Part shown: one piece after another, positions 2 through 21,594 of the stretch
How positions within the stretch are numbered: the first letter of the stretch is position 1
Layout: every line of letters begins with the position of its first letter
Virus record (IMG/VR): IMGVR_UViG_3300010373_000640
Coordinates: 1 to 21,594 of that record
Reading direction: 5' to 3' (one strand)
DNA length: 21,594 bases
Source of the DNA: a virus
Made by a program: the position numbers and the translations under genes
Notes under the pieces: model-generated
The model's input: only the letters and a program-made list of their open reading frames with translations
What the model was told of the DNA's origin: nothing
The model's database searches: none

Positions 2-3000
2 ACGGATGGCACACCCATGAATGAAAAAGAGGTTGCCGACGTAGTGTATAATGAGCTTCGTAAAAAAGCATTGGAAGGAAAACTAAAAACAGCTTCAGGG
101 CCGATAAAGCCGATTATTGAGGATAAAATACATGAAGTCAATAAAGATATTACCGATTTACACACGTCTGACGATGACAAGCAAAAGGCAGAACTCAATC
201 AATTGCTGCATGATAATTTAGATCAAATTAGGGTGAAGATGCCCACTATGGAACAACCAATCAAAGATGCCATTGCAGAAAACCGTCCTGAAGATATATT
301 TAGGGAAATAGCATCGCAGGCTATGGAGACTACTAAGGTGGATGGTAAAGAAGTTAGTTCCCGCGCCCCAACCGAAGAAATATTTGGCAAAGCGGTAGTT
401 GACAAGGCTATCGAATTATCTAAACAAAAAATAAAAGAAAATGGCAAAACCAACGCCTCCGAAGCCGAAGGGCGGCAAGGGAAAGTAATCGAAAAACCAG
501 CGGATGCGGCAAATCAGGGTGCTGCATCTGCCTTGGTTCCTAATTCAGAAACGATTCATTCGACGACAAATTTCAGAACATGGGATTTGGGCGACATGGA
601 AGGGAAGCCAGAGGATGAGGCGGCCAAAAAGCATCTCGAAGGTGTCGTAAGGGAATGGGATACAAAACCAGCCGGAACACAGGGAGAAACATTTGGCGAA
701 TTCATAAATCGGGTTATCCCTTCATTCGATAAGATTCTGAAAGAAGAACCAGAAAACACGACTATTGTCACGCATAGTTCTGTATTGAAAGCATTCAAGG
801 TGTGGGATGAAATGGGGCGTCCAGAAATAGATAAGATGACAGATGAGCAGAAAAAAGAATTTGCAGACGCTTATAACAAGCAAGAAACGCATAATGGAGA
901 CTTGGATACGTTCAATGGAACTAACGGTGATGTTCACGTTATAAGGCACGGGCAGACGGAAGATAATGAAAAAAACAATTTCCGATCTGGTAATACTAAC
1001 CTGACAAAAAAGGGGATTAACGATGCTGGCAACGCTGGACGGGAATTGAAAGATAAAACAGGCGGCGACGTTCCAAAAATAATAACCTCTGACTTACCAA
1101 GAGCTATTCATACATCAAATATTATAAACGATAAATTAAAAGAAAATGCCATACCAGAGCATCAAGCAGGAACGGTGGGCGCACACGCCAGCGGGGACGA
1201 AGGCGCTGGGGGGAGCGGCCAAGGTGAAGGAATGGGATCAAGCCAGCAAGGGCAAACATCTCCTATTCCGGGCGCACCGGCCAACGGGGAAGGCGGCGCA
1301 TTACCTCCAAAAGAAGGCGTAGGGAGTCCATTGTCTGTAGAAGACTCTGAAAATACATCAGGTATAAAACGAGTTATCTCTGAAGAACTCCGAACCACTA
1401 TTGGGCTACCGCAAGTAGAAATGAAAAAATTGGGTAGTGATTCCGAGAACCTACAAGCCGGAAAAGAGGCCGTTGATTCTGGTAAAATAGAGCCTCGTGT
1501 TGTAGCTATGAGAGTATTTTCTGATGGGCAAGGCAAAGGTATTTATACGCCAGAAGAAGGATGGGCCATGCAGTATTATTCTCATCAACTAGCGCAGGTA
1601 GAAAAATATTTGCGCTCGGCACTCCATGAGGCGAATACTGCGCTTAATAAAAATCCAGATAATACAGAAGCCGCTACTGCAAAAGATATTGCAATGCAGC
1701 GATTGGGGCAATTGGATGATGAAGTTGATTTAAAAACAAGAGCCGATAGGATTAATAGTAATTCGTGGGGAGGACTTGGGAATGCAATGAGTGCAGAGAC
1801 GGATGAAAGTTTCAGTCCTTCCAGAAATAAGTCTATTATCTCCGAAAATTATGGTGGGAAAATTCCTGAAGATGTTCAAAAAAGGTTAGATCAGGCTTTT
1901 GCAGAACGAGATAAGGCTCTTGCTGATTTGAAAGAGGCCAAAGAAAAAGTGGCCGAACAGGAATTGAAGAAAGATGCAGACAGATCGCCTTCTGTCGCAA
2001 AGACCATAAGAGATAAAAAGGCCGCGCTAAAGAAAGAACGTGTCGGGTTAATAGAAGAATTAAAGCAGGCAATAAAAAGAGATTCTAATCAATTGGGCGC
2101 AAACCCACTACCGATACATACTATAGAAGCCGTAAGTAAACTAGCTCTTAATTATTTTAAGGATGGCGTCTTAAGCGTAGAGGGGATAACAAACAGGATT
2201 TATGACGATTTGAAGGATGTGGTTAAGGGGATAGACAAAAACCAGATTAGAGAAGCCGTAGCCAACTATCAACCTTTAGCCAGAGAGCAGGCTACTGAAA
2301 AAGCTAAGAAAAAGGCGTCCAATTTGGAAGTGGATATCGAAATGGTAGAGGGAAGAAAAAAGACAAATCCAAAGTATACAATGGAATTGCCTGAGAAAAA
2401 GCCAAAAGTACCATTCGAAAAGGACATGGAATACAGAAAGGCAAACCAGAGATTGGTAAACGCAGAATTTAAAATTAAAAAAGAAAAACTACGATCTTAT
2501 GCTGCTAAAGAAACGAAATTTCAAAAAACATTAGGCTGGATAAATAGACTCACTAGATTATCTGTTCTTTCTGGCGTTAATGTTTTAGAAAAATTGGCGG
2601 CAGCGGCTACAATAGGTAGTGCATCCCAGAAACCAATAGAAGAAACGCTGAACGGTCTGTGGGGAAAAACCTTCCCAGAAATAAGAGGCAAGGCTGATAT
2701 AGACATGGGGGCTAATGCTGCGGCTACTGGAAAATATTATTCAGAATTTCTGAATCCAGAAAAGTTTTTAAAAGACTCGAAAGATATTCTTAAAAGTGGT
2801 GAGACGAATTTGGGTAAAGAATTGGAGAAGCAATTAAACAATCATATCCCTATCTTAGACTTGCCTACGGATTTGCACCAAGTAATAAAGGCTCCTGCTA
2901 AAAGAGCAATGTTTGAATATTCGTTGGCTAAAATTTTGGATGATCAAAGTAGAAAAGGAATAGACATCAATCATCCGCTTATAATTGAATCTGCTAGGCA

Positions 3001-3796
3001 AAGAGCTTTTGCGAGAGCTAAATATGAAATATTTCAAGAAAGTAATGATGTAAGCAAATGGATGAATAAAAAGATGTCTGAATGGGGTGATCAAGGAAAG
3101 ACGGGGGCGCTAAAACAATTCCTAACCAGACTAGCATTACCCGTAAGTACCGTGCCGACAAATATTGCCAGAAGAGTAGGACTATATACTATTGGCCTAC
3201 CCAAAGCATTGTTGTATGACATTCCTACCGCCTATTCTAAAGGCATAGAGAATTTAACCGAAGATGAAGCCAATCACATAGGCAGAGCATTGACTAAAGG
3301 AAGTATTGGTCTTGCGCTTTGGATGACAGGATATTTTGGGTACAAATCAATGGGAGGGATGTACACGAAATATGATCCGGATAAAGAACGAAAAAAAGAC
3401 CAAAGCCATACACTGCATGACCAATTGGAATTAATGAATGCGCCAATTAGTAGACCGTGGCAGCATGCACTCCCATTTCAGATAATGCAATTGGGTGCTA
3501 CTTTCAGACACATCTATGAGCATTCGGCACAAAAAAATAGCGATCCATTTGCGATTGCGCAAGCAACAATGGGAAGCACTGGCGCTATATTAGACCAGAT
3601 ACCAATAATAAATCGCGGAGTAGAAGCAATAACAGCAACTATGGACCCGTATCAAGGTAAAAAACTTGGAAATGATTTCCTGAGAGAATTTGAACCACAA
3701 ATATTGAGAGATTTGGGGGTTATAAAACCAGATAAAAAAGCCAGTGGTGGTGGCGCTGGGGCTGGCGGTCATTATGGAGGGGGGCATTCTGAATGA
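2..3796 (+). CDS. Large multidomain (polyvalent-type) phage protein with permuted histidine phosphatase, 5'-partial
   Basis: The frame is open from the window edge, so the true start is probably upstream; residue numbers here count from the Met at 17. Residues about 180-290 resemble the C-terminal half of a histidine phosphatase (WDLGDMEG at 189-196, VTHSS with His253). Residues about 305-385 resemble the N-terminal half (RHG at 310-312, then the FRSG...LTKKG and SDLPRA segments). A Gly/Pro-rich linker follows (about 390-440), then a charged coiled-coil-like stretch (about 617-690). The long, mostly helical C-terminal region has one hydrophobic segment (about 1095-1109) and a Gly/His tail. 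This mosaic style is typical of the 'large polyvalent proteins' of phages; which LPD families are present I cannot say. Its stop overlaps the start of the lysozyme-like gene by 4 nt, suggesting translational coupling. An internal virion or ejected role is inference. Whether the phosphatase is active is uncertain, because the usual acid/base Glu position appears to be Thr188. Confidence 0.85.
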   Translation, partial: TDGTPMNEKEVADVVYNELRKKALEGKLKTASGPIKPIIEDKIHEVNKDITDLHTSDDDKQKAELNQLLHDNLDQIRVKMPTMEQPIKDAIAENRPEDIFREIASQAMETTKVDGKEVSSRAPTEEIFGKAVVDKAIELSKQKIKENGKTNASEAEGRQGKVIEKPADAANQGAASALVPNSETIHSTTNFRTWDLGDMEGKPEDEAAKKHLEGVVREWDTKPAGTQGETFGEFINRVIPSFDKILKEEPENTTIVTHSSVLKAFKVWDEMGRPEIDKMTDEQKKEFADAYNKQETHNGDLDTFNGTNGDVHVIRHGQTEDNEKNNFRSGNTNLTKKGINDAGNAGRELKDKTGGDVPKIITSDLPRAIHTSNIINDKLKENAIPEHQAGTVGAHASGDEGAGGSGQGEGMGSSQQGQTSPIPGAPANGEGGALPPKEGVGSPLSVEDSENTSGIKRVISEELRTTIGLPQVEMKKLGSDSENLQAGKEAVDSGKIEPRVVAMRVFSDGQGKGIYTPEEGWAMQYYSHQLAQVEKYLRSALHEANTALNKNPDNTEAATAKDIAMQRLGQLDDEVDLKTRADRINSNSWGGLGNAMSAETDESFSPSRNKSIISENYGGKIPEDVQKRLDQAFAERDKALADLKEAKEKVAEQELKKDADRSPSVAKTIRDKKAALKKERVGLIEELKQAIKRDSNQLGANPLPIHTIEAVSKLALNYFKDGVLSVEGITNRIYDDLKDVVKGIDKNQIREAVANYQPLAREQATEKAKKKASNLEVDIEMVEGRKKTNPKYTMELPEKKPKVPFEKDMEYRKANQRLVNAEFKIKKEKLRSYAAKETKFQKTLGWINRLTRLSVLSGVNVLEKLAAAATIGSASQKPIEETLNGLWGKTFPEIRGKADIDMGANAAATGKYYSEFLNPEKFLKDSKDILKSGETNLGKELEKQLNNHIPILDLPTDLHQVIKAPAKRAMFEYSLAKILDDQSRKGIDINHPLIIESARQRAFARAKYEIFQESNDVSKWMNKKMSEWGDQGKTGALKQFLTRLALPVSTVPTNIARRVGLYTIGLPKALLYDIPTAYSKGIENLTEDEANHIGRALTKGSIGLALWMTGYFGYKSMGGMYTKYDPDKERKKDQSHTLHDQLELMNAPISRPWQHALPFQIMQLGATFRHIYEHSAQKNSDPFAIAQATMGSTGAILDQIPIINRGVEAITATMDPYQGKKLGNDFLREFEPQILRDLGVIKPDKKASGGGAGAGGHYGGGHSE

Positions 3797-5087: not shown

Positions 5088-5582
5088 ATGCCATTAACGG
5101 CAAGTTTTACAGTAGCGGCTACTTCGGACGAAACCGCCGCTTTTTTAACCGATACGTCAACCGGATCGGACGTTGCCATCACGGACAGAAAGATACTTCT
5201 GTATGATATTTCCAACACTTTATTGGGTACTTATGATTGGCCGATAGCCGATTCTTCTATAACAATCAACCCATTTACAAAAGACATAAGCGTCAATGTG
5301 GTCGTTAATTGGGTAGATGTGGACGGGAATACTTTGTACACATATTCTTTGTTGTTTGCTGCTGTTCAGTTTGCCGTACAATTTTTGTATTCTCTAATTC
5401 AGCAATTACAGGCCAAGCCGACGAAAGTGAATGATCAGGTTTTCTTCGACAATTTGAAACTATTAGATTTATTGATCGATTCGGCGCAATTAGCTATTGA
5501 TACTGGCGGCGATCAATATTCAGCAGAAACGTGTATTTCTCTTTATCAAAACATGATCAATAATCAAATATCATTCTTTTGA
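5088..5582 (+). CDS. Hypothetical phage structural protein
   Basis: This 164-residue protein starts at an ATG 32 nt after the previous stop, following an A/T-rich spacer without a Shine-Dalgarno sequence. The N-terminal 80 or so residues are rich in Thr, Ser, Val and Asp and look like a small beta-sandwich. The C-terminal part is helical (FAVQFLYSLIQQLQ, then LLDLLIDSAQLAIDTG). It carries no motif I can name. Its position between the lysozyme-like protein and the Ig-domain/fibre genes suggests a virion component such as a tail-tip or fibre-attachment protein. Its stop overlaps the TTG start of the next gene, so the two are probably made together. Real coding sequence is likely; function is unknown. 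Confidence 0.75.
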   Translation: MPLTASFTVAATSDETAAFLTDTSTGSDVAITDRKILLYDISNTLLGTYDWPIADSSITINPFTKDISVNVVVNWVDVDGNTLYTYSLLFAAVQFAVQFLYSLIQQLQAKPTKVNDQVFFDNLKLLDLLIDSAQLAIDTGGDQYSAETCISLYQNMINNQISFF

Positions 5583-6442
5583 GCCAACAGTTAAATATAG
5601 CAACAATTTTGTCTATCGCTAAAATATGCCAATATACTGATGTTGTATCTGTAGGAAGCAATATTGCTTTGAAAGGTGGAGATATAAATCAGCGACAGCC
5701 AGTGCTAATTAACATTGTAAGAAAATCTGTTCAGAATAGATTTAATTTAAATTCATCCGACTTTACATTGAGGGATACTGCCAATTATCTTTTGTCTTTA
5801 TTGAGGCAATGGCCGTTAGCTCAAAATATCTTTAACAAAATTTCCGCTGGCATCGCAACAATAAGCAATCCAGCTGATCAATCGATAAATGTAGGTCAGT
5901 CGGCTACTTTCACAGTAACAGTTACATCACCAACTGCCTATACAGTTGCTTGGTATCGTAATGGAGTGATTATTCCGGGAGCAACGGGGTTATCTTATAC
6001 ACTAACGAACGCTCAATTAACGGATAGTGGTGCAATGTTTTCGGCTATTGCGACAAACGCGGCTGGGCCAGTTTCTTCTAACACGGCTACTCTGACGGTT
6101 ACGGCGTTATTGACGGCACAATGGTGGTTTGGGTCAACTGATCCTTATGCTGCGTTGAGCGCTGGAAGCGATACACTTTCTTATCAAATTAATCAAACTA
6201 TTACGCATGACGCCGCTATAACTATTAATTATCCAATAGGTGCCGAAAATAATCAATTCAATGTACTGAGATACCCAAATACGGAGAACCAAAAGACGAC
6301 TTGGTTTAATACAAATTTAAATAATGGAATTATAGGCGATCCGCAGATGAGAAATATTTTGAACATAAATAATTTTTATTACATAGTTAGCAGAGTGGCT
6401 ATGTCTCTTGATAATGTAACAACTTCTTTGACGTACACTTAA
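5579..6442 (+). CDS. Ig-like domain phage structural protein
   Basis: This is a 287-residue protein. The start is TTG at 5579, overlapping the upstream stop (TTGA). No in-frame ATG occurs before about residue 153, so the TTG is needed to keep the helical N-terminal 90 residues. Residues about 93-176 form an immunoglobulin-like beta-sandwich: a buried Trp in VAWYRNG (Trp125), then SYTLTNAQLTDSGAMFSAIATNAAG, the usual 'D-S/A-G-x-Y' turn and F/G strands. The cysteine pair of I-set domains is absent. Such domains decorate many phage tail and capsid proteins and are thought to bind carbohydrate or stabilise surfaces. The last 110 residues (after WWFGSTDPY) look like another beta domain that I do not recognise. 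The gene sits directly upstream of the main fibre gene, which fits a fibre-base or decoration role. Confidence 0.8.
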   Translation: MSQQLNIATILSIAKICQYTDVVSVGSNIALKGGDINQRQPVLINIVRKSVQNRFNLNSSDFTLRDTANYLLSLLRQWPLAQNIFNKISAGIATISNPADQSINVGQSATFTVTVTSPTAYTVAWYRNGVIIPGATGLSYTLTNAQLTDSGAMFSAIATNAAGPVSSNTATLTVTALLTAQWWFGSTDPYAALSAGSDTLSYQINQTITHDAAITINYPIGAENNQFNVLRYPNTENQKTTWFNTNLNNGIIGDPQMRNILNINNFYYIVSRVAMSLDNVTTSLTYT

Positions 6443-6452
6443 ATATTTGAGC

Positions 6453-9400
6453 ATGAAAACATGCCATAGGATCGCTCTACTGGATAAATACCGGTCAGCG
6501 GTCCTAACGACAGTTATCTTATCGTTTTTTATGTTTGCCAAAGGGCAAACCACATACAATCCCTCGCAACCTCCGGGGATGTATCAGACTTTAAATAAGC
6601 CAATAGGGTCGGGGCAAGCGTTTAACGTAGAGGCCAGAAGCCTAAAGGCCGATTCTGTTAATTTTGTGTATAGGCCATACAATGGGACAAGCGAGGTTTT
6701 GTCCTATCTTAATCTTCCAAAATACCGGTATGGCTGGTTCCCTATTTTTGTTAACGTAGGCGGCTCCCTTCAAAGTAATGGGACATTTATCGGCGGCCAA
6801 ATACAAGTTTATTGGTTCCGAGATGGGACAGCAGATGGTAATTTAATCAGATGGTACACCGATTCAACTAGCGCATCGGGAGCCTTTTTTGCCATAGCCA
6901 ATAATCTTTCCGAAGGAAATCCGGGACTGATTAAAGGGAATCTTTCTTTGGATTTGGTTACCAACACAAGCGATGCCCAAAAATGGATTGCTACAGCGAC
7001 ATTGACAAATAAAACAATGTCGGGCTTAAGCAATACGTTTACAAATATTCCCAATTCAGCCCTACAAAATAATGCTATAGGGTTAAGCATAACTAGCAAC
7101 GCAGGATCGGATATTTCTGTCACAACGACTCCCGCCTCTCTGGGAACTTCTTTGGTATTTAATGTGCCAACTGCAAGCGGAAGCCAGCGCGGCGCTTTAG
7201 CTCCCGGCGATTGGGCTATTTTTGCAGCTAAACAAAATGCAATAACGCTTACTACCTCAGGTTCAACCGGCCCTGCAACTTTTATAGCAAATGTGTTGAA
7301 TATACCGCAATATGTATCGGCAACGCCGTGTTTTAATTGCAACGCGGATTCTTTAATGACCTTCCCATTTGACACAACGAATACAAGGAATAATTACGTA
7401 ATAGCATACGATAGTGTTAATCGGAAATTATTTTTGACGCCTCAAACGGGCGGCGGCGGCAGTGGGATTAACCAATTGACGGGGGATGGAACTGCTGGCC
7501 CCGGATCAGGAAGTCAAGTGTTTACATTAGCTACTGTAAATAGCAACGTAGGAACATTTGGAAGTGCCACCACTGTTCCGCAAATTACACTTAATGGGAA
7601 GGGGCTGGCAACGGCGGCCGTTGGCGTATCCATACAAATAGCCGAAAGTCAGGTAACAAATTTAACTACTGATCTTGCCGGAAAAGTCGGAACGTCTTTA
7701 AACTCGGGGCAGATATTTGTTGGAGGAGCGGCCAATGTCGTAAATAATGTTACGCCGTCGGGAGCCGTTTCGATGACGAATACGGGAGTTTTTTCGTTGA
7801 CCGCCAATTCTGTGGCTACGTCAAATATTCAAGCTAACGCGGTCACCTTGGCTAAAATGGCGACCAATACTTCAAATACGCTTTTGGGTTATGATGGAGT
7901 GGGAAATCCAGTGGATGTAACGCTGACAACAACAGGTACAAGCGGTACGGCTAGTCTAGTTGCAGGCGTTTTGAATATCCCACATTATTCAGATGGGCAA
8001 ACATTAACCTATACACAGAACGCCACTAATAACACCCTTGCAATAAGCGGTGGAAATACGCAAACGTTTTTGACAGCCACAACTAATCTAGCTGGTTTAA
8101 TGGACACGGCAAGAACCAGATGGGTAGATAGTGGCAGAAATAGGCTTTTCTCGTTTGCCTTTGTTCAAGGATTGCAACCGGCAGGACTGGATAGCGCTCA
8201 GCTTGGTGGTTCTTTTTATAAGCCAGATACACTTGATTTTGCGTATCAGCCTTTCTTGTGGCAGCATGTCACAAGTGCTAGTTCTTTATCTGTGGGAGAT
8301 TCAGTTACGCTCATAGCATCTAATGGTCAGGTGAAAAAAGGGGCGACTACTTTATTCGGCGGAATAACAGCAGCGCAGGTCGCATTTAATCTCCCGCAAA
8401 AAATATCAAGCCCGTTGGGCATATCCTATTGGAACGACTACTTTTTTTCTTCGTCTGGGGCTATACAAAATTACACTACAGCAGGAACAGTTACTTTGGC
8501 TCAAAATGGGAACTTTCTGAAATTTCGTGGTGGGACGTTCGGCACCTACACCAATTATCTGTACAAAAATGTAACGTCTTATTCAGAATGGATGGACAAT
8601 TGGGTGAAAGTAAGTGTGGATTCTATCGGGACGGCATTCGGCGGATTGACGTGGGGCAAGGGCGCAGGTGGTAATCCGTTATTGGGCGCGATTGATTTGC
8701 GAACCACAAGTTCTCATAACTTAACTATTGTATCCGCCGGTACTGTTGTAGCGACTAAGACACCCGCTACACTTGCTCCCGCGCAGGGCGATACGCTTAC
8801 CTTGCATTGGTATATCCATCAAGATACTGTACGGTTTGCAGTCTATGATCAGACATCGTCCGTTAGCGATTCCGTACAATATGTATTCCCGTCCACAACT
8901 TTTAACGATGCAACTACGGGCACCTACCCAACTTTTGGGAATTATACATTAGGGTCTCAAGCTGGTGCTTACACGATGGTTTATCAATCCGTAGTAACCG
9001 ATAACCCGTATAGGTCGATTTTAGCGGTTTTGGGCCATTCAATAGTACAAGGGTATGATGGTGGGTCGTTCGCTAATAGATTGTCGGAACGTCTAGCAGC
9101 TACTTATGGGTATGTTCCCGCCTTTGGCTCATCTGGCGATGTATTTGCAAATGTCGAAGCTCGATTAATGGATGTTATCCGTATTCAACCGCGCAATGTC
9201 GTTATTTATATTGGATGTAATGATGTTAGAAATTTGATAACGGCGGGATGGACAACGCCACAGATTTTGGCGTACATAAAAGTTCAGATGGGTGCTTTGT
9301 TATCCAGACTGCAACGGGCTGGTATATGGCCGATTATTATATACACGCCTGAGACAGGAACAGCGGCAACACAACAATATGAAGCCGATAGCCTTTTGAG

Positions 9401-11708
9401 AGTTAATTGGCCGCAATACTATTGCGCGGTTTACGATACGATTGCGTCGAATACAGCGAGTTTTATAACTGGCTCAGGCGGTATCCACTTGTCTTCATCC
9501 GGCATGGCAGCAGCAGTTGCCTATATGGTCAACCATGCTAATATTCAAGTCAGCACGTACGTGCCCAACCATGTAGCTGGCGGTGAAGGATACCCAACCT
9601 TTGGCGATACAGCCCAGATCACCAATACTTGGAAATTCAACACTAGCAGTCCCTTTAATAACGGGTATGGGATTGAAAATGCCGAATTTATAAATCAGGA
9701 TAGCGGTGGCTCCACAAGCCCAAATGTGGTATTTAGAAAATATTCGGGGACAACGGCGGCTATTAATTTTGAGCAGATGATCTTAACGGGGTCCAATTGG
9801 GCAACTAGTTCTACTTTCGAAAGTTTCACTGCATCTGGGTTGAATGTATACAAAGTACAAGTAGATGGGAGTATATTTTTCAGCGGAACGATAACCAGTC
9901 AGAATACTGGCGTTCCTTTTAAAAACAGTAGAGGGGATACATGGACAATGGCGTATGATGCTACGTATGGTACCGGCGATAACGTTATTTGGCAATCTAC
10001 TCCGGGATCAGGTGGGTATACGCGTTATGAAAGCAATGGGCCAGCAATCATCGGTTCAATCGGAGCGAATCCAATATGGTTTGATGCCAATAGGGCTCAT
10101 GCAGGCAGTAGTCCGACCGGTTTCCCTTTTGGGATCACTGGCACAAATATTCCTACTTTCAATACTCCTCCCGTAATTAATAATGTCACAGTTGCCACCG
10201 GATCAATTCTTATTCAGGGAACAGATAGTGTGGTTCACAAACTTGGGATAGGTAGTGGGCTGTCTGTAGTGGGGGGTAATTTGACGGCTCCCGGTGGCGG
10301 CACTGGCGGCTCATCGCCACCATTCAACAGCGACGCATCGCATCCAATTCTTCGAGATTTTGCCGACACTACTAAATTGTTGGATTTTAATATTAGCGCG
10401 TTAACTACCGCTTCTACAACGACGATAATTGTTCCTAATGGTGGCGGTACAATGGCTTTTATAAATACGAATCAAACGTTTAGTGGCAGTAATACATTCA
10501 CTCCTTCTCAGACGTTTAGTGGCGGCCTAACTGCCGGAAGCGTTACCAACAATACGACGATAACGGCCAGCAATAGCCTTACTGGAACGAATGGACAGCC
10601 CGTATTGCAGCTTAATTCTACCTTAAACGACGGAACTACTATAGCCACAGTAATTGACCTATCGGCGACCAATACAGCCACTAATGCATCAAGCATGCTT
10701 TTTAGATTGCGAAGCGGTAGCGCTGGAACCACGGATGAATTTCATATATTGATGGATGGCTCCGTTACTAGCGCAAGCGGTAATTTTAATACTAGTGGCA
10801 CTACTTTAACTTTAGCCAACAATCATACTAATTCTACTCTTACTTTTGGCTCAACGTACGGAACGAATGATAATCTAGTACAAGGTCGGCCGGGAGCAGG
10901 GACGGGATATAGTGTATTTGAAGATGGAACAGGCATAGGGGTTATAATAAGTGGCGTTGGCGTACATCCGATAAAATTCGCACCAAATAGAACGGTAGTG
11001 GCGCAGTTTTTTGGAGGAACTAATTTTGCCGTCGGTTCGACAACAGATAATAACGCTTTTATACAAATTGGGGCCAATACCACTACGAACGCATCCATGT
11101 TTTTTAATGGGGCAGCATCAGATGTGACAAGCCCAACTAATGGCATGATGTGGTATAATTCATCTACTCATGCACTTAATTTTAGGGACAATGGCGCAAC
11201 TTTAAATTTATTGGCTGGTAGTTTTTACAATACCGTACAAGCTAATACAAGTGCACAAACACAGCGGCCTAATCTTAATTTTAAATCAGACTTTACCGTT
11301 GCTGATAATAGTGGTAATTCTTCTACTGATATAAGCATTGCTTCTACGAAATTAAGCTCAGGTGTTTGGACACCAACGGTGACCGCCGGAACTAATGTAT
11401 CTGCCGGAAGTGGCAATAAGTGTACCTATACCAGAACGGATAGTATTGTGACCTTTGCTGGCAGTATAAATGCGACTATTACTTTGGCCGCAACGGCTTC
11501 TTCTGTAACGGTATCTTTGCCAATAGGAAGCACCTTTACTGCCGCTACGGACGCTAATGGCGTTCTTGGTTCAAATACGGCACTTAGCCTAAACCCAGAA
11601 AATTTAATCGCTAATACATCTACTAACACATTAACGATAAACTTCGGATCTGGTTCATCTACTGGCGGGTATGTAATATATTTCAGCGGCCAATATACAA
11701 TTCATTAA
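6453..11708 (+). CDS. Giant tail fibre / adhesin with embedded SGNH-hydrolase-like domain and signal-peptide-like N-terminus
   Basis: I chose the ATG at 6453 (1751 residues) over an in-frame TTG at 6447. The first 32 residues read like a signal peptide: a basic start, hydrophobic AVLTTVILSFFMF, then AKGQ. The rest is Gly/Ser/Thr/Asn-rich beta sequence typical of Bacteroidota phage fibres, with two copies of an LTTxG(S/T)SG...VLNIPxY unit (7246-7315, 7921-7989). Residues about 855-1025 match an SGNH/GDSL hydrolase: block I GHSIVQG (Ser863), block III GCND (Asn923), block V GGIHLSSSG (His1012). The usual Asp three residues before the His is Gly1009. Two related units (about 9940-10110 and 10830-11020) share YGTxDN...PGxGxGY...PIxFxxNR. 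The C-terminal region (SSGVWTPTVTAG to FSGQYTIH) resembles fibre-tip receptor-binding domains. Likely role: host adhesion and possible deacetylation or deacylation of surface glycans. Confidence 0.85.
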   Translation: MKTCHRIALLDKYRSAVLTTVILSFFMFAKGQTTYNPSQPPGMYQTLNKPIGSGQAFNVEARSLKADSVNFVYRPYNGTSEVLSYLNLPKYRYGWFPIFVNVGGSLQSNGTFIGGQIQVYWFRDGTADGNLIRWYTDSTSASGAFFAIANNLSEGNPGLIKGNLSLDLVTNTSDAQKWIATATLTNKTMSGLSNTFTNIPNSALQNNAIGLSITSNAGSDISVTTTPASLGTSLVFNVPTASGSQRGALAPGDWAIFAAKQNAITLTTSGSTGPATFIANVLNIPQYVSATPCFNCNADSLMTFPFDTTNTRNNYVIAYDSVNRKLFLTPQTGGGGSGINQLTGDGTAGPGSGSQVFTLATVNSNVGTFGSATTVPQITLNGKGLATAAVGVSIQIAESQVTNLTTDLAGKVGTSLNSGQIFVGGAANVVNNVTPSGAVSMTNTGVFSLTANSVATSNIQANAVTLAKMATNTSNTLLGYDGVGNPVDVTLTTTGTSGTASLVAGVLNIPHYSDGQTLTYTQNATNNTLAISGGNTQTFLTATTNLAGLMDTARTRWVDSGRNRLFSFAFVQGLQPAGLDSAQLGGSFYKPDTLDFAYQPFLWQHVTSASSLSVGDSVTLIASNGQVKKGATTLFGGITAAQVAFNLPQKISSPLGISYWNDYFFSSSGAIQNYTTAGTVTLAQNGNFLKFRGGTFGTYTNYLYKNVTSYSEWMDNWVKVSVDSIGTAFGGLTWGKGAGGNPLLGAIDLRTTSSHNLTIVSAGTVVATKTPATLAPAQGDTLTLHWYIHQDTVRFAVYDQTSSVSDSVQYVFPSTTFNDATTGTYPTFGNYTLGSQAGAYTMVYQSVVTDNPYRSILAVLGHSIVQGYDGGSFANRLSERLAATYGYVPAFGSSGDVFANVEARLMDVIRIQPRNVVIYIGCNDVRNLITAGWTTPQILAYIKVQMGALLSRLQRAGIWPIIIYTPETGTAATQQYEADSLLRVNWPQYYCAVYDTIASNTASFITGSGGIHLSSSGMAAAVAYMVNHANIQVSTYVPNHVAGGEGYPTFGDTAQITNTWKFNTSSPFNNGYGIENAEFINQDSGGSTSPNVVFRKYSGTTAAINFEQMILTGSNWATSSTFESFTASGLNVYKVQVDGSIFFSGTITSQNTGVPFKNSRGDTWTMAYDATYGTGDNVIWQSTPGSGGYTRYESNGPAIIGSIGANPIWFDANRAHAGSSPTGFPFGITGTNIPTFNTPPVINNVTVATGSILIQGTDSVVHKLGIGSGLSVVGGNLTAPGGGTGGSSPPFNSDASHPILRDFADTTKLLDFNISALTTASTTTIIVPNGGGTMAFINTNQTFSGSNTFTPSQTFSGGLTAGSVTNNTTITASNSLTGTNGQPVLQLNSTLNDGTTIATVIDLSATNTATNASSMLFRLRSGSAGTTDEFHILMDGSVTSASGNFNTSGTTLTLANNHTNSTLTFGSTYGTNDNLVQGRPGAGTGYSVFEDGTGIGVIISGVGVHPIKFAPNRTVVAQFFGGTNFAVGSTTDNNAFIQIGANTTTNASMFFNGAASDVTSPTNGMMWYNSSTHALNFRDNGATLNLLAGSFYNTVQANTSAQTQRPNLNFKSDFTVADNSGNSSTDISIASTKLSSGVWTPTVTAGTNVSAGSGNKCTYTRTDSIVTFAGSINATITLAATASSVTVSLPIGSTFTAATDANGVLGSNTALSLNPENLIANTSTNTLTINFGSGSSTGGYVIYFSGQYTIH

Positions 11709-15853: not shown

Positions 15854-16271
15854 GGTGGTAAGGAGGTGTATTTTGCTTATCGTCATTGGCCTGTTGTTAG
15901 AGGAGGCTCCGTCGATGGTAATGGATTTCTTACCAAGATGGGCTAAAACGGAAGGAGATTGGTTTTTAAGGCCAACCTTTCATTACTCTGTGCAACACGC
16001 GTGGATGCTTAAATTTATAACCGATAGTTTATGGGATGTAATTCGAGCTTATATCATTTGTGTCTTAGCTAAGAGGTATAGTATGTTTCTGTTTTATGTA
16101 TGTGTTCTTTACTTCGGGTATGAAATAGTTGGTTTTGTAATGCTGTTTTGGGATTTTAAAACTAACCACGCGCTATTTTATTACATATTGATATTGGCTT
16201 GGATTATATTAGAGGGCCTAGTTAAACAATATAGCCCAGAGACTATAGGAAAAGTTAAAAGTCTGTTTTAA
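15843..16271 (+). CDS. Multi-TM membrane protein of the lysis region
   Basis: The frame is open from about 15720, but the upstream stretch reads as a shadow of the proline-rich gene. The ATG at 15843 gives a 142-residue protein beginning directly with a basic residue cluster and a hydrophobic helix (CILLIVIGLLL). Two or three more helices follow (IRAYIICVLA, FYVCVLYFGYEIVGFVMLFW, FYYILILAWIILEGL). No family is recognised. Topology is comparable to the 96-residue protein at 14044. The stop abuts the HNH endonuclease start (TAATG), so translation of the endonuclease is probably coupled to it. Confidence 0.6.
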   Translation: MLDKVVRRCILLIVIGLLLEEAPSMVMDFLPRWAKTEGDWFLRPTFHYSVQHAWMLKFITDSLWDVIRAYIICVLAKRYSMFLFYVCVLYFGYEIVGFVMLFWDFKTNHALFYYILILAWIILEGLVKQYSPETIGKVKSLF

Positions 16272-17044
16272 TGGAACAATGGGGAATAATAAAAGAAATG
16301 AATGGTTTCTTTGAAGTGTCATCTGAGGGTAGGGTTAGGGGGCGTCATAGGGAATTTGTAAATAAAAAGAACGCAAGACAAGTGGTAAATGGATCGATGT
16401 TGACACCCGCTATAGATAGATATGGGTATATGAATGTTACGTTAACTATATGCGGTAAAAAACACTATAAACGAGTGCATAGGTTAGTTGCGGAGACATT
16501 TATTGCTAAGCCAGATGGGAAGAATGTCGTTAACCATAAAAATGGGATTAAGACAGATAATAGATTGGATAATTTAGAGTGGGTTACAGACATTGAAAAT
16601 TTATCACACGCTCATCTGGCATTAGGGTATAAGTCTAAATTTGGTATTCCGATATTACAATACGATATGAATGGGGATTTAGTAAAAGAATGGGAAAATA
16701 TGGCTGCTGCTCAAAAGAATGGTTTTTTATCAAGCGAAATATGCACATGCGCCCAAAACCAGAATTTGACACATTATGGGTATAGGTGGGCTTATAAAGG
16801 TAGCCAGAATGTATTAAGTAAATTTCCTGAATCTAGGTTAGAGTCGTATAAAAGAAGGGATAAAAATAGGACTAAAGTCAACCAACTATCACCTAATGGA
16901 GACTTTATTAAGAAATGGGAGAGCATTTCAGAGGCTAGCAGAGCGTTAAAAATGTCCACTTCCGGGATTTCAAATGCCGCAAAAGGTAAAAGAGTAATCT
17001 GTGGTGGGTTTAAATGGGAATATATTTTAGTCATCAAAAAATAA
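16271..17044 (+). CDS. Free-standing HNH homing endonuclease with NUMOD4 and NUMOD1 modules
   Basis: This is a 257-residue protein. Residues 3-55 match a NUMOD4 DNA-binding module (WGIIKEMNGFFEVSSEGRVR). Residues 66-105 contain the HNH nuclease signature (RVHRLVAETFI with His70, VVNHKNGIKTDNRLDNLEW with His89 and the paired Asn/Asp segment). Two NUMOD1/IENR-like repeats follow at about 127-176 and 203-252. Each runs from a Y/L-x-x-x-G-D-hydrophobic-hydrophobic-K-x-W start to an aromatic G-Y/F-R/K-W end. Enzymes of this build nick or cut a specific DNA site and spread their own gene into empty alleles. The gene has no visible intron around it, sits between membrane-protein genes and starts at the previous stop. 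All key residues look intact, so it may be active. Its many AGA/AGG codons suggest a separate origin, but I did not compute this. Confidence 0.9.
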   Translation: MEQWGIIKEMNGFFEVSSEGRVRGRHREFVNKKNARQVVNGSMLTPAIDRYGYMNVTLTICGKKHYKRVHRLVAETFIAKPDGKNVVNHKNGIKTDNRLDNLEWVTDIENLSHAHLALGYKSKFGIPILQYDMNGDLVKEWENMAAAQKNGFLSSEICTCAQNQNLTHYGYRWAYKGSQNVLSKFPESRLESYKRRDKNRTKVNQLSPNGDFIKKWESISEASRALKMSTSGISNAAKGKRVICGGFKWEYILVIKK

Positions 17045-17202: not shown

Positions 17203-17331
17203 ATGAAATGGGAGGATACTTTTTGGAAAGTATGCCATGTGGTGGCACTTATATTCGCTGTGTTGGCCTTGGCATATTTTATCTATAGTATCCCAGATAG
17301 AGAAACATTATATCAAATTTATGGAGAATGA
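17203..17331 (+). CDS. Very small single-TM protein
   Basis: This ORF of 42 codons starts immediately after the previous TAA and ends in a TGA that overlaps the GIY-YIG gene start (ATGA). The polar start contains MKWEDTFWK. A central hydrophobic helix (VVALIFAVLALAYFIYSI) and a charged tail (PDRETLYQIYGE) follow. Perfect start/stop packing with both neighbours is the main argument that it is a real gene. No family can be named. Confidence 0.55.
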   Translation: MKWEDTFWKVCHVVALIFAVLALAYFIYSIPDRETLYQIYGE

Positions 17332-18119
17332 GTGCAATAACTGATCAGGAAAGAGATGCGGAGGTTGAAAGATCGCTTGATGAATTGGAGAGAATGATAT
17401 ATTCCCCTGAGCCATCTATTTACGGCATTCGTAATTTAATAGATTTTAAGATTTATGTTGGCAGTACAAAAAATATGAGGCAAAGGGTTAGGAGACATCG
17501 GTACGATTTAAAGAAGGGGGTTCATAAAAATCCACATCTTCAAAATGCTTACAATAAGTACGGGAAGAGGAATTTTGTTTATTTTTCATTGCAGAAATGG
17601 GATATATTTTCTTTGAAAGATGCAGAACAACATTGGATAGATTTTTTTAAATCATATGATAGGGAGTTTGGCTACAATCATCAGCCCGCAGCTTATTCTA
17701 ACAAAGGAGTTAAACTAAGCGAAAAGACAAGAAAAAAAATAGGAGACTTCTTCAGGGGTAAGCCGAAAACAATAGAACAAAACAAGAAAAACGCAGATGC
17801 TCATCTTGGGTCAAAAAACATTAATTACGGGAAGCCTATATCAGAAAAATTAAGTCGCGCTATTGCGGCTGCCAATATTAGGGGGAGGCAAAAATTTAAG
17901 TTTTTAAATCCTGATGGGAAATGGATTGAAATAGTTGGTCTTCAATACTTCTGCAAACAAAATGGACTAAGTGCTGCTGCTATGAGCCAAGTATATAATG
18001 GGAAACAAGGAAACCATCAAGGATGGAAAAGCGAAAAAAGCCTAATTCGTAAACAAAGGAAAATATACAAAAAAAGTGGACACAGAATCAATAAAGAATC
18101 TAACAACCCTACACCCTAG
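17328..18119 (+). CDS. Free-standing GIY-YIG homing endonuclease with NUMOD3 repeats
   Basis: This is a 263-residue protein. The GIY-YIG nuclease domain spans about residues 30-120: SIYGIRN and KIYVGST (the GIY and YIG strands, 31-46), basic QRVRRHR with the expected catalytic Arg, NAYNKYGKRNFVYF, and AEQHWIDFF with candidate metal-binding Glu100. Two NUMOD3-like DNA-binding units follow (about 126-150 and 160-188, SNKGVKLSEKTRKKI and GKPISEKLSRAI). A helix-turn-helix-like module (about 189-235) ends in GWK. The first 25 residues are an acidic extension not typical of the family. The C-terminal 15 residues are encoded within the start of the endolysin gene, a 44-nt overlap. It is the second homing-type nuclease in this lysis module and probably targets a lysis-gene junction in related phages. 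Confidence 0.88.
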   Translation: MSAITDQERDAEVERSLDELERMIYSPEPSIYGIRNLIDFKIYVGSTKNMRQRVRRHRYDLKKGVHKNPHLQNAYNKYGKRNFVYFSLQKWDIFSLKDAEQHWIDFFKSYDREFGYNHQPAAYSNKGVKLSEKTRKKIGDFFRGKPKTIEQNKKNADAHLGSKNINYGKPISEKLSRAIAAANIRGRQKFKFLNPDGKWIEIVGLQYFCKQNGLSAAAMSQVYNGKQGNHQGWKSEKSLIRKQRKIYKKSGHRINKESNNPTP

Positions 18120-18543
18120 ATTTAGGGCATCCGCTATTCAAGCATGGACGGAAGCGCAGGCCGCTATGCCGGATAATGTACAGGTTGTCGTTATCCAAGG
18201 GCTAAGAACATTCGCCGAAAGCGATGCTTTATATGCTCAGGGGCGAACAGCGCCGGGGCCAATAGTCACTAAGGCTGCTGCTGGTCAATCATATCATAAT
18301 TATGGGTTGGCCTTCGATTTTAAAATGATAACAGATGGTAAAGAAGACGATGTAGTAGGACCGCATTGGATGATCGTGGTAAAGATTATGAAGGCGTATG
18401 GAATGACATGGGGAGGGGACTTCCCAGAAGGTTTCCATGACAATCCTCACTTCGAAAATAAGTTTGGGCATAATTGGCGAGACCTATTGGCCCTCTATAA
18501 CTCAAAAACATTCATTCCAAACACGGAGTACGTTCTTATTTAA
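18076..18543 (+). CDS. M15 family peptidase, phage endolysin (L-Ala-D-Glu / D,D-carboxypeptidase type)
   Basis: This 155-residue protein starts at GTG 18076; the next Met is residue 31. The N-terminal DTESIKNLTTLHPRFR matches the usual 'S...L..LHP..R' start of this family, so the GTG is preferred. GLRTFAESDALYAQGR (42-57) is the conserved R-T-x-x-E-x-x-x-L-Y-x-Q-G-R element. SYHNYGLAFD supplies Zn ligands His74 and Asp81. DNPHFEN supplies Asp122 (catalytic candidate) and His125 (Zn). Length is normal for a single-domain enzyme without a wall-binding domain, as in many Gram-negative phages. It cleaves the peptide part of peptidoglycan after holins open the inner membrane. Its 5' end overlaps the GIY-YIG gene, and a terminator follows 27 nt after the stop, making it the last gene of the long rightward unit. 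Confidence 0.9.
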   Translation: MDTESIKNLTTLHPRFRASAIQAWTEAQAAMPDNVQVVVIQGLRTFAESDALYAQGRTAPGPIVTKAAAGQSYHNYGLAFDFKMITDGKEDDVVGPHWMIVVKIMKAYGMTWGGDFPEGFHDNPHFENKFGHNWRDLLALYNSKTFIPNTEYVLI

Positions 18544-21052: not shown

Positions 21053-21594
21053 TTATGTTAACCTTCGAATAATATCCCCGCCATAGGCGTTTTTGGTCAA
21101 TTCTACGAACTCTTCGCGGGTCATATCGGACTCCAATAGTATCCCGTGTTGGGATACCCAAAGGTCTTTACCTGTCTTACATGATCCGGTTAATAGGCTA
21201 TGCCATTCGTAGAAGAGAGAGGCGGCGTATTTTACCCCCTTTTTGAATTGACTCTTAAACTGTTCGATCTTTTCATCCACGCTCTGGTTAGATATCCATT
21301 TCTGTAAAGCCTGTTCGGTGGCTTCTTTGATGGTCTTTCCGTGGGCGAAGAATCCTTCCTTTTTAGCGACGTACATTTTTATCGATTCGAAGGATGCAAC
21401 ATTAATGACATCAACTAAGGCACAATCCCCCTTTATGGATCGGATAACACAAGGAATGCCATCAATGTAATGAACAGGTTCTTTTTTGTAGAGGGATATT
21501 TTTAAGCCGTAGCCGTCGCCGTCGCCGTTGCCGTTGCCGTTGCCGTAGCCGTTGCCGTTGCCGTAGCCGTTGCCGTAGCCGTTGCCGTTGCCGT
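21053..21594 (-). CDS. Phage protein with Gly-X dipeptide repeat and conserved TGSC...G domain, 5'-partial
   Basis: The leftward frame is open to the window edge. A shorter ATG-initiated version starting at 21376 exists but would drop obviously coding sequence. The visible protein starts with 14 full Gly-X units (X = Asn, Tyr or Asp), then about 150 residues: LKISLYKKEPVHYIDGIP, a FFAHGKTIKEATEQAL helix, SLFYEWHSLLTGSCKTGKD, and TREEFVELTKNAYGGDII near the end. I recognise this layout (F-x-H-G-x-T, L-T-G-S-C-x-x-G, T-x-x-E-F-x-x-L-T...Y-G-G) from uncharacterised proteins of many phages, often led by leucine-rich or Gly-X repeats. The function is unknown to me. There is no TM segment. It is the upstream-most gene of the leftward operon visible here. 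Confidence 0.75.
   Translation of the reverse strand, partial: GNGNGYGNGYGNGNGYGNGNGNGDGDGYGLKISLYKKEPVHYIDGIPCVIRSIKGDCALVDVINVASFESIKMYVAKKEGFFAHGKTIKEATEQALQKWISNQSVDEKIEQFKSQFKKGVKYAASLFYEWHSLLTGSCKTGKDLWVSQHGILLESDMTREEFVELTKNAYGGDIIRRLT
21506..21594. repeat. GCCGTN hexanucleotide tandem repeat
   Basis: There are fourteen complete 6-nt units and a partial one running off the edge. Only the last base of each unit varies (A, C or T). On the coding (minus) strand each unit reads NAC-GGC, so the variable base is the first codon position and the encoded residue changes among Asn, Tyr and Asp while every other residue is Gly. Confidence 0.95.

What the first reader, a model, noticed from the sequence alone, without database searches (positions are those of the whole stretch)
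550..1170. Histidine phosphatase with its halves in swapped order inside a giant phage protein
The C-terminal half signatures (WDLGDMEG, GETFGEFINRV, VTHSS) come before the N-terminal half signatures (RHGQTEDN, LTKKG, SDLPRA). The joint between them (about residues 290-308) sits where natural C- and N-termini would meet. This is the arrangement expected of a circular permutation rather than two broken domains, as no second copy of either half is seen in the window. The usual acid/base Glu two residues before the W-D-x-G segment appears as Thr188, while both catalytic histidines (311, 253) remain. A permuted phosphatase in a polyvalent protein would be unusual and could act on host nucleotides or signalling molecules.
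Basis: partly seen in the sequence, partly recalled or inferred. Interest (0 to 1): 0.6.

Follow-up and report, generated by a model that had tools for sequence, protein, structure and literature searches.

The report
Circularly permuted phage histidine phosphatase domain
A giant phage protein carries a phosphatase-type domain whose two halves have swapped order; the same rearranged domain occurs in at least 17 different phage fragments, descends from a single event, keeps its catalytic residues and is predicted to fold normally, so it is a real, apparently undescribed natural rearrangement of a very common enzyme.

Summary
In the 5'-truncated ORF at 2-3796 (+), Pfam His_Phos_1 matches in swapped order: profile 60-154, then 2-71. 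It is not a fragment or an assembly accident. Sixteen more viral contigs carry the same C-half-then-N-half order, with the cut at the same place, in at least three unrelated giant-protein contexts and one nearly stand-alone protein. None has a second copy of either half. AlphaFold gives one compact domain (pLDDT 93, pTM 0.88). A profile built from normal-order relatives splits the domain in two, but the same profile written twice in tandem aligns it as one unit. A tree puts all 17 in one clade (100/99) inside a phage-only clade whose other members have the normal order. The catalytic Arg-His/Arg/His set is intact in 17 of 17. The missing acid Glu (Thr or Ala here) is also missing in all 10 normal-order phage relatives, so its loss came before the permutation. 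Host proteins include virion-structural, lytic-transglycosylase and Kinase-PolyVal fusions, so a virion-delivered effector is likely; activity and substrate are untested. I found no report of a permuted histidine phosphatase. New variant of a known kind.

The parts
2..3796 (+). Giant phage ORF holding the domain (1264 aa, open at the 5' window edge; about 830 residues missing compared with L005)
422..541 (+). Poorly conserved linker before the domain (21% identity to L004/L005)
542..928 (+). C-terminal half of the histidine phosphatase fold, encoded first (residues 181-309; LR-T-WDLGDMEG, GETF, VTHSS, last strand)
   Evidence: Pfam profile 60-154; half-HMM 174 bits
578..580 (+). Thr193 in place of the usual acid/base Glu
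   Evidence: Alignment; T or A in 17/17 permuted copies
773..775 (+). His258, second catalytic histidine (VTH)
   Evidence: H in 17/17
914..934 (+). Joint where the ancestral C- and N-termini meet (FNGTNGD)
   Evidence: Halves 0-1 aa apart in 16 of 17 copies
929..1147 (+). N-terminal half, encoded second (residues 310-382; RHGQTEDN, LTKKG, SDLPRA)
   Evidence: Pfam profile 2-71; half-HMM 113 bits
944..949 (+). Arg315-His316, phosphate-binding Arg and nucleophile His of RHG
   Evidence: R-H in 17/17
1100..1102 (+). Arg367 of SDLPR, second phosphate-binding Arg
   Evidence: R in 17/17
1148..1351 (+). Low-complexity Gly-rich linker after the domain
   Evidence: 31% identity to L004/L005
3793..5055 (+). 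Next gene, conserved beside the giant gene in relatives; weak SLT (lytic transglycosylase-like) match in L005

Best explanation
This is a naturally circularly permuted histidine phosphatase (branch 1) domain. Its chain starts at the strand before the W-D-x-G segment, runs through the ancestral C-terminus, across a short loop into the ancestral N-terminus (RHG), and ends after the SDLPRA helix. Shown by computation: one origin within a phage-specific, Glu-less histidine phosphatase clade; then spread as a module between unrelated giant phage proteins; strong conservation of the domain and its RH/R/H active site. Inferred: it arose by in-frame tandem duplication inside a multidomain protein, with later loss of the outer halves; it folds as one unit and forms a phospho-His intermediate like other members; it acts as one module of a virion-borne polyvalent protein that enters the host early, removing phosphate from a host protein or small molecule. 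Lack of the usual acid favours a substrate with a good leaving group such as phosphohistidine (my guess, about 30%), with nucleotide-type signals next. Rough confidence: permutation 0.97; catalytic competence 0.75; delivery into the host 0.55.
For: Swapped Pfam halves. Same order in 16 other viral contigs, one C-half and one N-half each. About 65 bacterial-genome relatives, none in swapped order. AlphaFold pLDDT 93.3, pTM 0.88. Doubled profile of normal-order relatives: one domain of 96.5 bits against 32.7+53.6 split, no gain for the normal-order control L024. Foldseek, a sequential aligner, finds only the N-half (2f90, probability 0.93, rmsd 1.4 over 66 columns), while the normal-order phage relative finds full-length histidine phosphatases such as 1h2e (E 1.7e-11). 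Tree: 17 permuted copies one clade 100/99, grouped with normal-order phage copies 100/99. Active site 17/17. Domain 72-80% identical to the nearest relatives while later parts of the protein are 16-20%. Host-protein contexts: SLT and internal virion protein, virion structural protein, Kinase-PolyVal; nearly stand-alone copy L033.
Against: No experiment; activity, substrate and delivery are inferred. The acid Glu is missing, so the domain could be a slow enzyme or a phosphate/phosphoprotein-binding module. The window's own ORF has no second recognised domain. No duplication intermediate (N-C-N-C) was seen. All copies are metagenome or database contigs, none from a cultured phage record. Coordinates of the model could not be superposed on a solved structure.
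Confidence: 0.8

Rival explanations
1. Two broken histidine phosphatase remnants: a C-half left from one copy next to an N-half left from another, decaying and non-functional.
For: Only two partial Pfam matches in the window; the gene is truncated.
Against: Order, cut point and catalytic residues are kept across 17 divergent copies (29-75% identity) and no partner halves exist; the domain is among the best-conserved parts of the protein; AlphaFold gives one fold.
Confidence: 0.02
2. The rearranged domain folds correctly but has lost catalysis and serves as a binding module (for a phosphorylated host protein or phosphate compound).
For: Acid Glu absent in 17/17; giant multidomain setting.
Against: Nucleophile His, second His and both Arg are invariant, which is not typical of a dead enzyme; Glu-less relatives in normal order keep the same set (9 of 10 keep the second His).
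Confidence: 0.18
3. The two halves are not one intramolecular domain but pair between neighbouring subunits of a virion assembly (domain swap), the permutation being tolerated because copies sit side by side.
For: L034 has about 175 residues inserted at the joint; host proteins may be virion proteins.
Against: 16 of 17 copies have a 0-1 residue gap and a short loop; monomer model pTM 0.88; nearly stand-alone L033.
Confidence: 0.05
4. Structural or assembly role in the virion only, not a host-acting effector: the enzyme acts during assembly or on the phage's own proteins.
For: L023 host protein matches a virion structural family; neighbouring genes look virion-related.
Against: Fusion to Kinase-PolyVal, a domain of proteins proposed to be injected (PMC5512222); swapping between unrelated hosts is typical of effector modules.
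Confidence: 0.25

Closest known systems
Histidine phosphatase superfamily branch 1 (PF00300: dPGM, PhoE, CobC, SixA)
   Same: Both halves pass the Pfam cut-off; RHG, second His, SxLxR, LTxxG all present; predicted single fold.
   Different: Order of the halves reversed; acid Glu replaced by Thr/Ala; no specific NCBIfam model reaches its cut-off.
Normal-order phage histidine phosphatases with LR[PT]WxLG (L024, L116-L124; L024 matches phrog_12933, unknown function)
   Same: Same clade (100/99), Glu absent, also found in large phage proteins as well as alone.
   Different: Normal N-to-C order.
Polyvalent proteins of phages and conjugative elements (Iyer et al. 2017, PMC5512222)
   Same: Giant multidomain phage proteins; L035 carries Kinase-PolyVal with the permuted phosphatase.
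   Different: That paper's main text mentions no histidine phosphatase or phosphoglycerate mutase.
Circularly permuted DNA adenine methylases in jumbo phages (PMC7824862)
   Same: Precedent for circularly permuted enzymes in phages.
   Different: Unrelated enzyme.

Membership tests
Histidine phosphatase superfamily branch 1 | Sequence match above the curated Pfam cut-off | tested here: met
   85.7 bits against 21.7, both halves
Histidine phosphatase superfamily branch 1 | RHG nucleophile His, second His, two Arg | tested here: met
   17/17 copies; quartet named in PMC5501728
Histidine phosphatase superfamily branch 1 | Single alpha/beta fold of the family | tested here: met
Histidine phosphatase superfamily branch 1 | N-to-C order of halves (usual, not strictly defining) | tested here: not met
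   Reversed in all 17
Histidine phosphatase superfamily branch 1 | Acid/base Glu (common, not defining; absent in some members such as SixA, from my own knowledge) | tested here: not met
   T or A in 17/17
Histidine phosphatase superfamily branch 1 | Phosphatase or mutase activity | not testable with these tools
   Needs a bench assay
CobC / dPGM / SixA / GpmB subfamilies | NCBIfam equivalog cut-off | tested here: not met
   Best TIGR03162 64.1 against 162.9 bits
Polyvalent protein | Several catalytic domains of unlike activity in one chain | tested here: inconclusive
   Met in relatives L035 and L022; window ORF shows only the phosphatase
Polyvalent protein | Packaged and injected with DNA | not testable with these tools
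   Only context: virion-related fusions and neighbours

The most novel reading that the evidence does not exclude
First natural circular permutation in the histidine phosphatase superfamily. It arose once in phages and has spread between unrelated giant virion proteins as an injected enzyme module that disarms host phospho-signalling early in infection, alongside an injected kinase in at least one case.
Probability: 0.4. Interest if true: 0.75.

Novelty: new variant of a known kind. Interest (0 to 1): 0.62.

Why it matters
Histidine phosphatases are one of the most widespread enzyme superfamilies, and I found no described permuted member. A once-arisen permutation conserved at 29-75% identity shows the fold tolerates new termini between the SxLxRA helix and the next strand, and gives a clean marker for tracing module traffic between large phages. 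It also adds a phosphatase to the known arsenal of polyvalent proteins, including a kinase-phosphatase pair in one chain. Sequential search tools split it into two partial hits, so annotators may read it as fragments.

Tried and rejected
Scans with the whole domain or C-half returned only the two close relatives; the N-half plus joint and the 13-member alignment gave the wider family. First genome scan found nothing; the second gave 65 loci, none in swapped order. Cultured phage and plasmid records: with permuted queries only partial matches, no place covering 80% of the query. Foldseek against BFVD: nothing at E<=0.001. A missing upstream N-half was checked and rejected. The Glu-to-Thr change as a mark of the permutation was rejected. 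Two acid-column entries (one E in L023, one gap in L015) are artefacts of merging the halves; the direct alignment shows Thr. TEDN invariance is partly a product of the scan pattern HG[EQ]TEDN. Paper searches for permuted histidine phosphatases found none, within an open-licence library only.

Full report
Observation. The window is a 21,594-base viral record. Its first ORF, 2-3796 (+), is open at the 5' edge and encodes 1264 residues. Pfam His_Phos_1 matches it with 85.7 bits against a cut-off of 21.7, in two stretches and in swapped order: residues 174-265 on profile positions 60-154, then the RHG half on positions 2-71. Each half alone scores E about 4e-12.

Full-length relatives. Contigs L004 (75.9 kb) and L005 (43 kb) encode 2172 and 2093 aa homologues with the same swapped domain at 72-75% identity. 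About 1010-1020 residues lie upstream of the domain, and neither Pfam nor half-specific HMMs find an N-half there or a second C-half downstream. The domain is 72% (C-half) and 80% (N-half) identical to these relatives, while the linkers are 21-31% and the later parts of the protein 16-20%; only the stretch just upstream (69%) is comparable.

A family of permuted copies. Scanning with the N-half plus joint, and then with a 13-member alignment, gave in total 16 other viral contigs with C-half followed by N-half, at 29-75% identity for the 12 aligned with the window. Half-specific HMMs show exactly one of each half per ORF, 0-1 residues apart in 16 of 17 copies; L034 has about 175 residues inserted at the joint. 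The cut is at the same place in all. The same search over 65 loci from bacterial genomes finds N before C wherever both halves are detected, and never the reverse.

One fold. AlphaFold on the 13-member alignment gives mean pLDDT 93.3 and pTM 0.88, with the strand and helix order expected for a permuted copy. A profile of normal-order relatives splits the window domain into 32.7 and 53.6 bits; the same profile written twice in tandem aligns it as one stretch of 96.5 bits crossing the repeat boundary. The other permuted copies gain likewise, except L034 with its insert, while the normal-order control L024 gains nothing. Foldseek aligns in sequence order and so finds only the N-half for the permuted model (2f90, rmsd 1.4 over 66 columns). 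The model of a normal-order phage relative (pLDDT 89.3, pTM 0.85) finds full-length histidine phosphatases such as 1h2e PhoE (E 1.7e-11, TM about 0.7).

Origin. A pattern for LR[PT]WxLG found nine normal-order phage histidine phosphatases, alone or in large proteins. With halves placed in common columns, a tree puts all 17 permuted copies in one clade (100/99), grouped with the ten normal-order phage copies (100/99) apart from bacterial-genome copies (a first tree without the nine gave 89/86). The permutation thus appears to have happened once, in phages. Duplication followed by loss of the outer halves is the usual route for such events (established knowledge) and is inferred here; no intermediate was seen.

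Active site. The RHG Arg and His, the second His and the SxLxR Arg are present in 17/17; these are the family's catalytic cluster (PMC5501728). The usual Glu is Thr or Ala in 17/17, Pro or Thr in 10/10 normal-order phage copies, and Glu in 62/62 bacterial-genome copies. Its loss is therefore a trait of the phage clade that came before the permutation.

Setting. Host proteins fall into groups with no or little similarity outside the domain: the window group; L017/L019/L020/L021/L023; L018/L035; L022; and the nearly stand-alone L033 (about 312 aa). L022 joins the domain to an SLT lytic transglycosylase and an internal virion protein family. L023 matches a virion structural protein (E 1.5e-90). 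L035 carries Kinase-PolyVal and an exonuclease match. Kinase-PolyVal belongs to proteins proposed to be injected with phage DNA, mainly in Bacteroidetes and Verrucomicrobia lineages (PMC5512222). Delivery of the permuted phosphatase into the host is thus a reasonable inference, not shown. The substrate is unknown.

Novelty. The open-licence paper library has no paper joining histidine phosphatase with circular permutation, and related queries gave nothing relevant. The main text of the polyvalent-protein survey mentions no histidine phosphatase. This is a new variant of a known kind; subscription papers could not be searched.

Noticed in passing
L022 (IMGVR_UViG_2651869516_000092) 8924-11488: This phage appears to read TGA as Trp: every in-frame stop in the 855-aa SLT plus permuted phosphatase gene is TGA, and open-frame length about doubles under code 4.
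   Followed up: partly
L034 ORF 5769-11516, residues about 875-1049: About 175 residues inserted exactly at the joint of the ancestral termini; identity of the insert unknown.
   Followed up: partly
L035 ORF 7818-16280: One 2821-aa phage protein carries a permuted phosphatase, Kinase-PolyVal and an exonuclease match: kinase and phosphatase in the same chain.
   Followed up: partly
L004, L005, L014, L015, L016 giant ORFs: L004 and L005 share the front and phosphatase parts but have unrelated rear parts, each matching other phages: module swapping around the domain.
   Followed up: partly
window 6447-11708: 1753-aa protein with a GDSL/SGNH hydrolase domain (E 4.8e-9), part of a tail-fibre-like region by appearance.
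   Followed up: no
window 5579-6442: Ig-like domain resembling tail and Hoc-like head decoration proteins.
   Followed up: no
window 16271-17044 and 17328-18119: Two ORFs that look by eye like HNH and GIY-YIG homing endonucleases, next to an endolysin (18076-18543).
   Followed up: no
window about 21500-21594, - strand: Gly-Asn/Gly-Tyr repeat (GNGNGYGNGYG) running off the window end.
   Followed up: no
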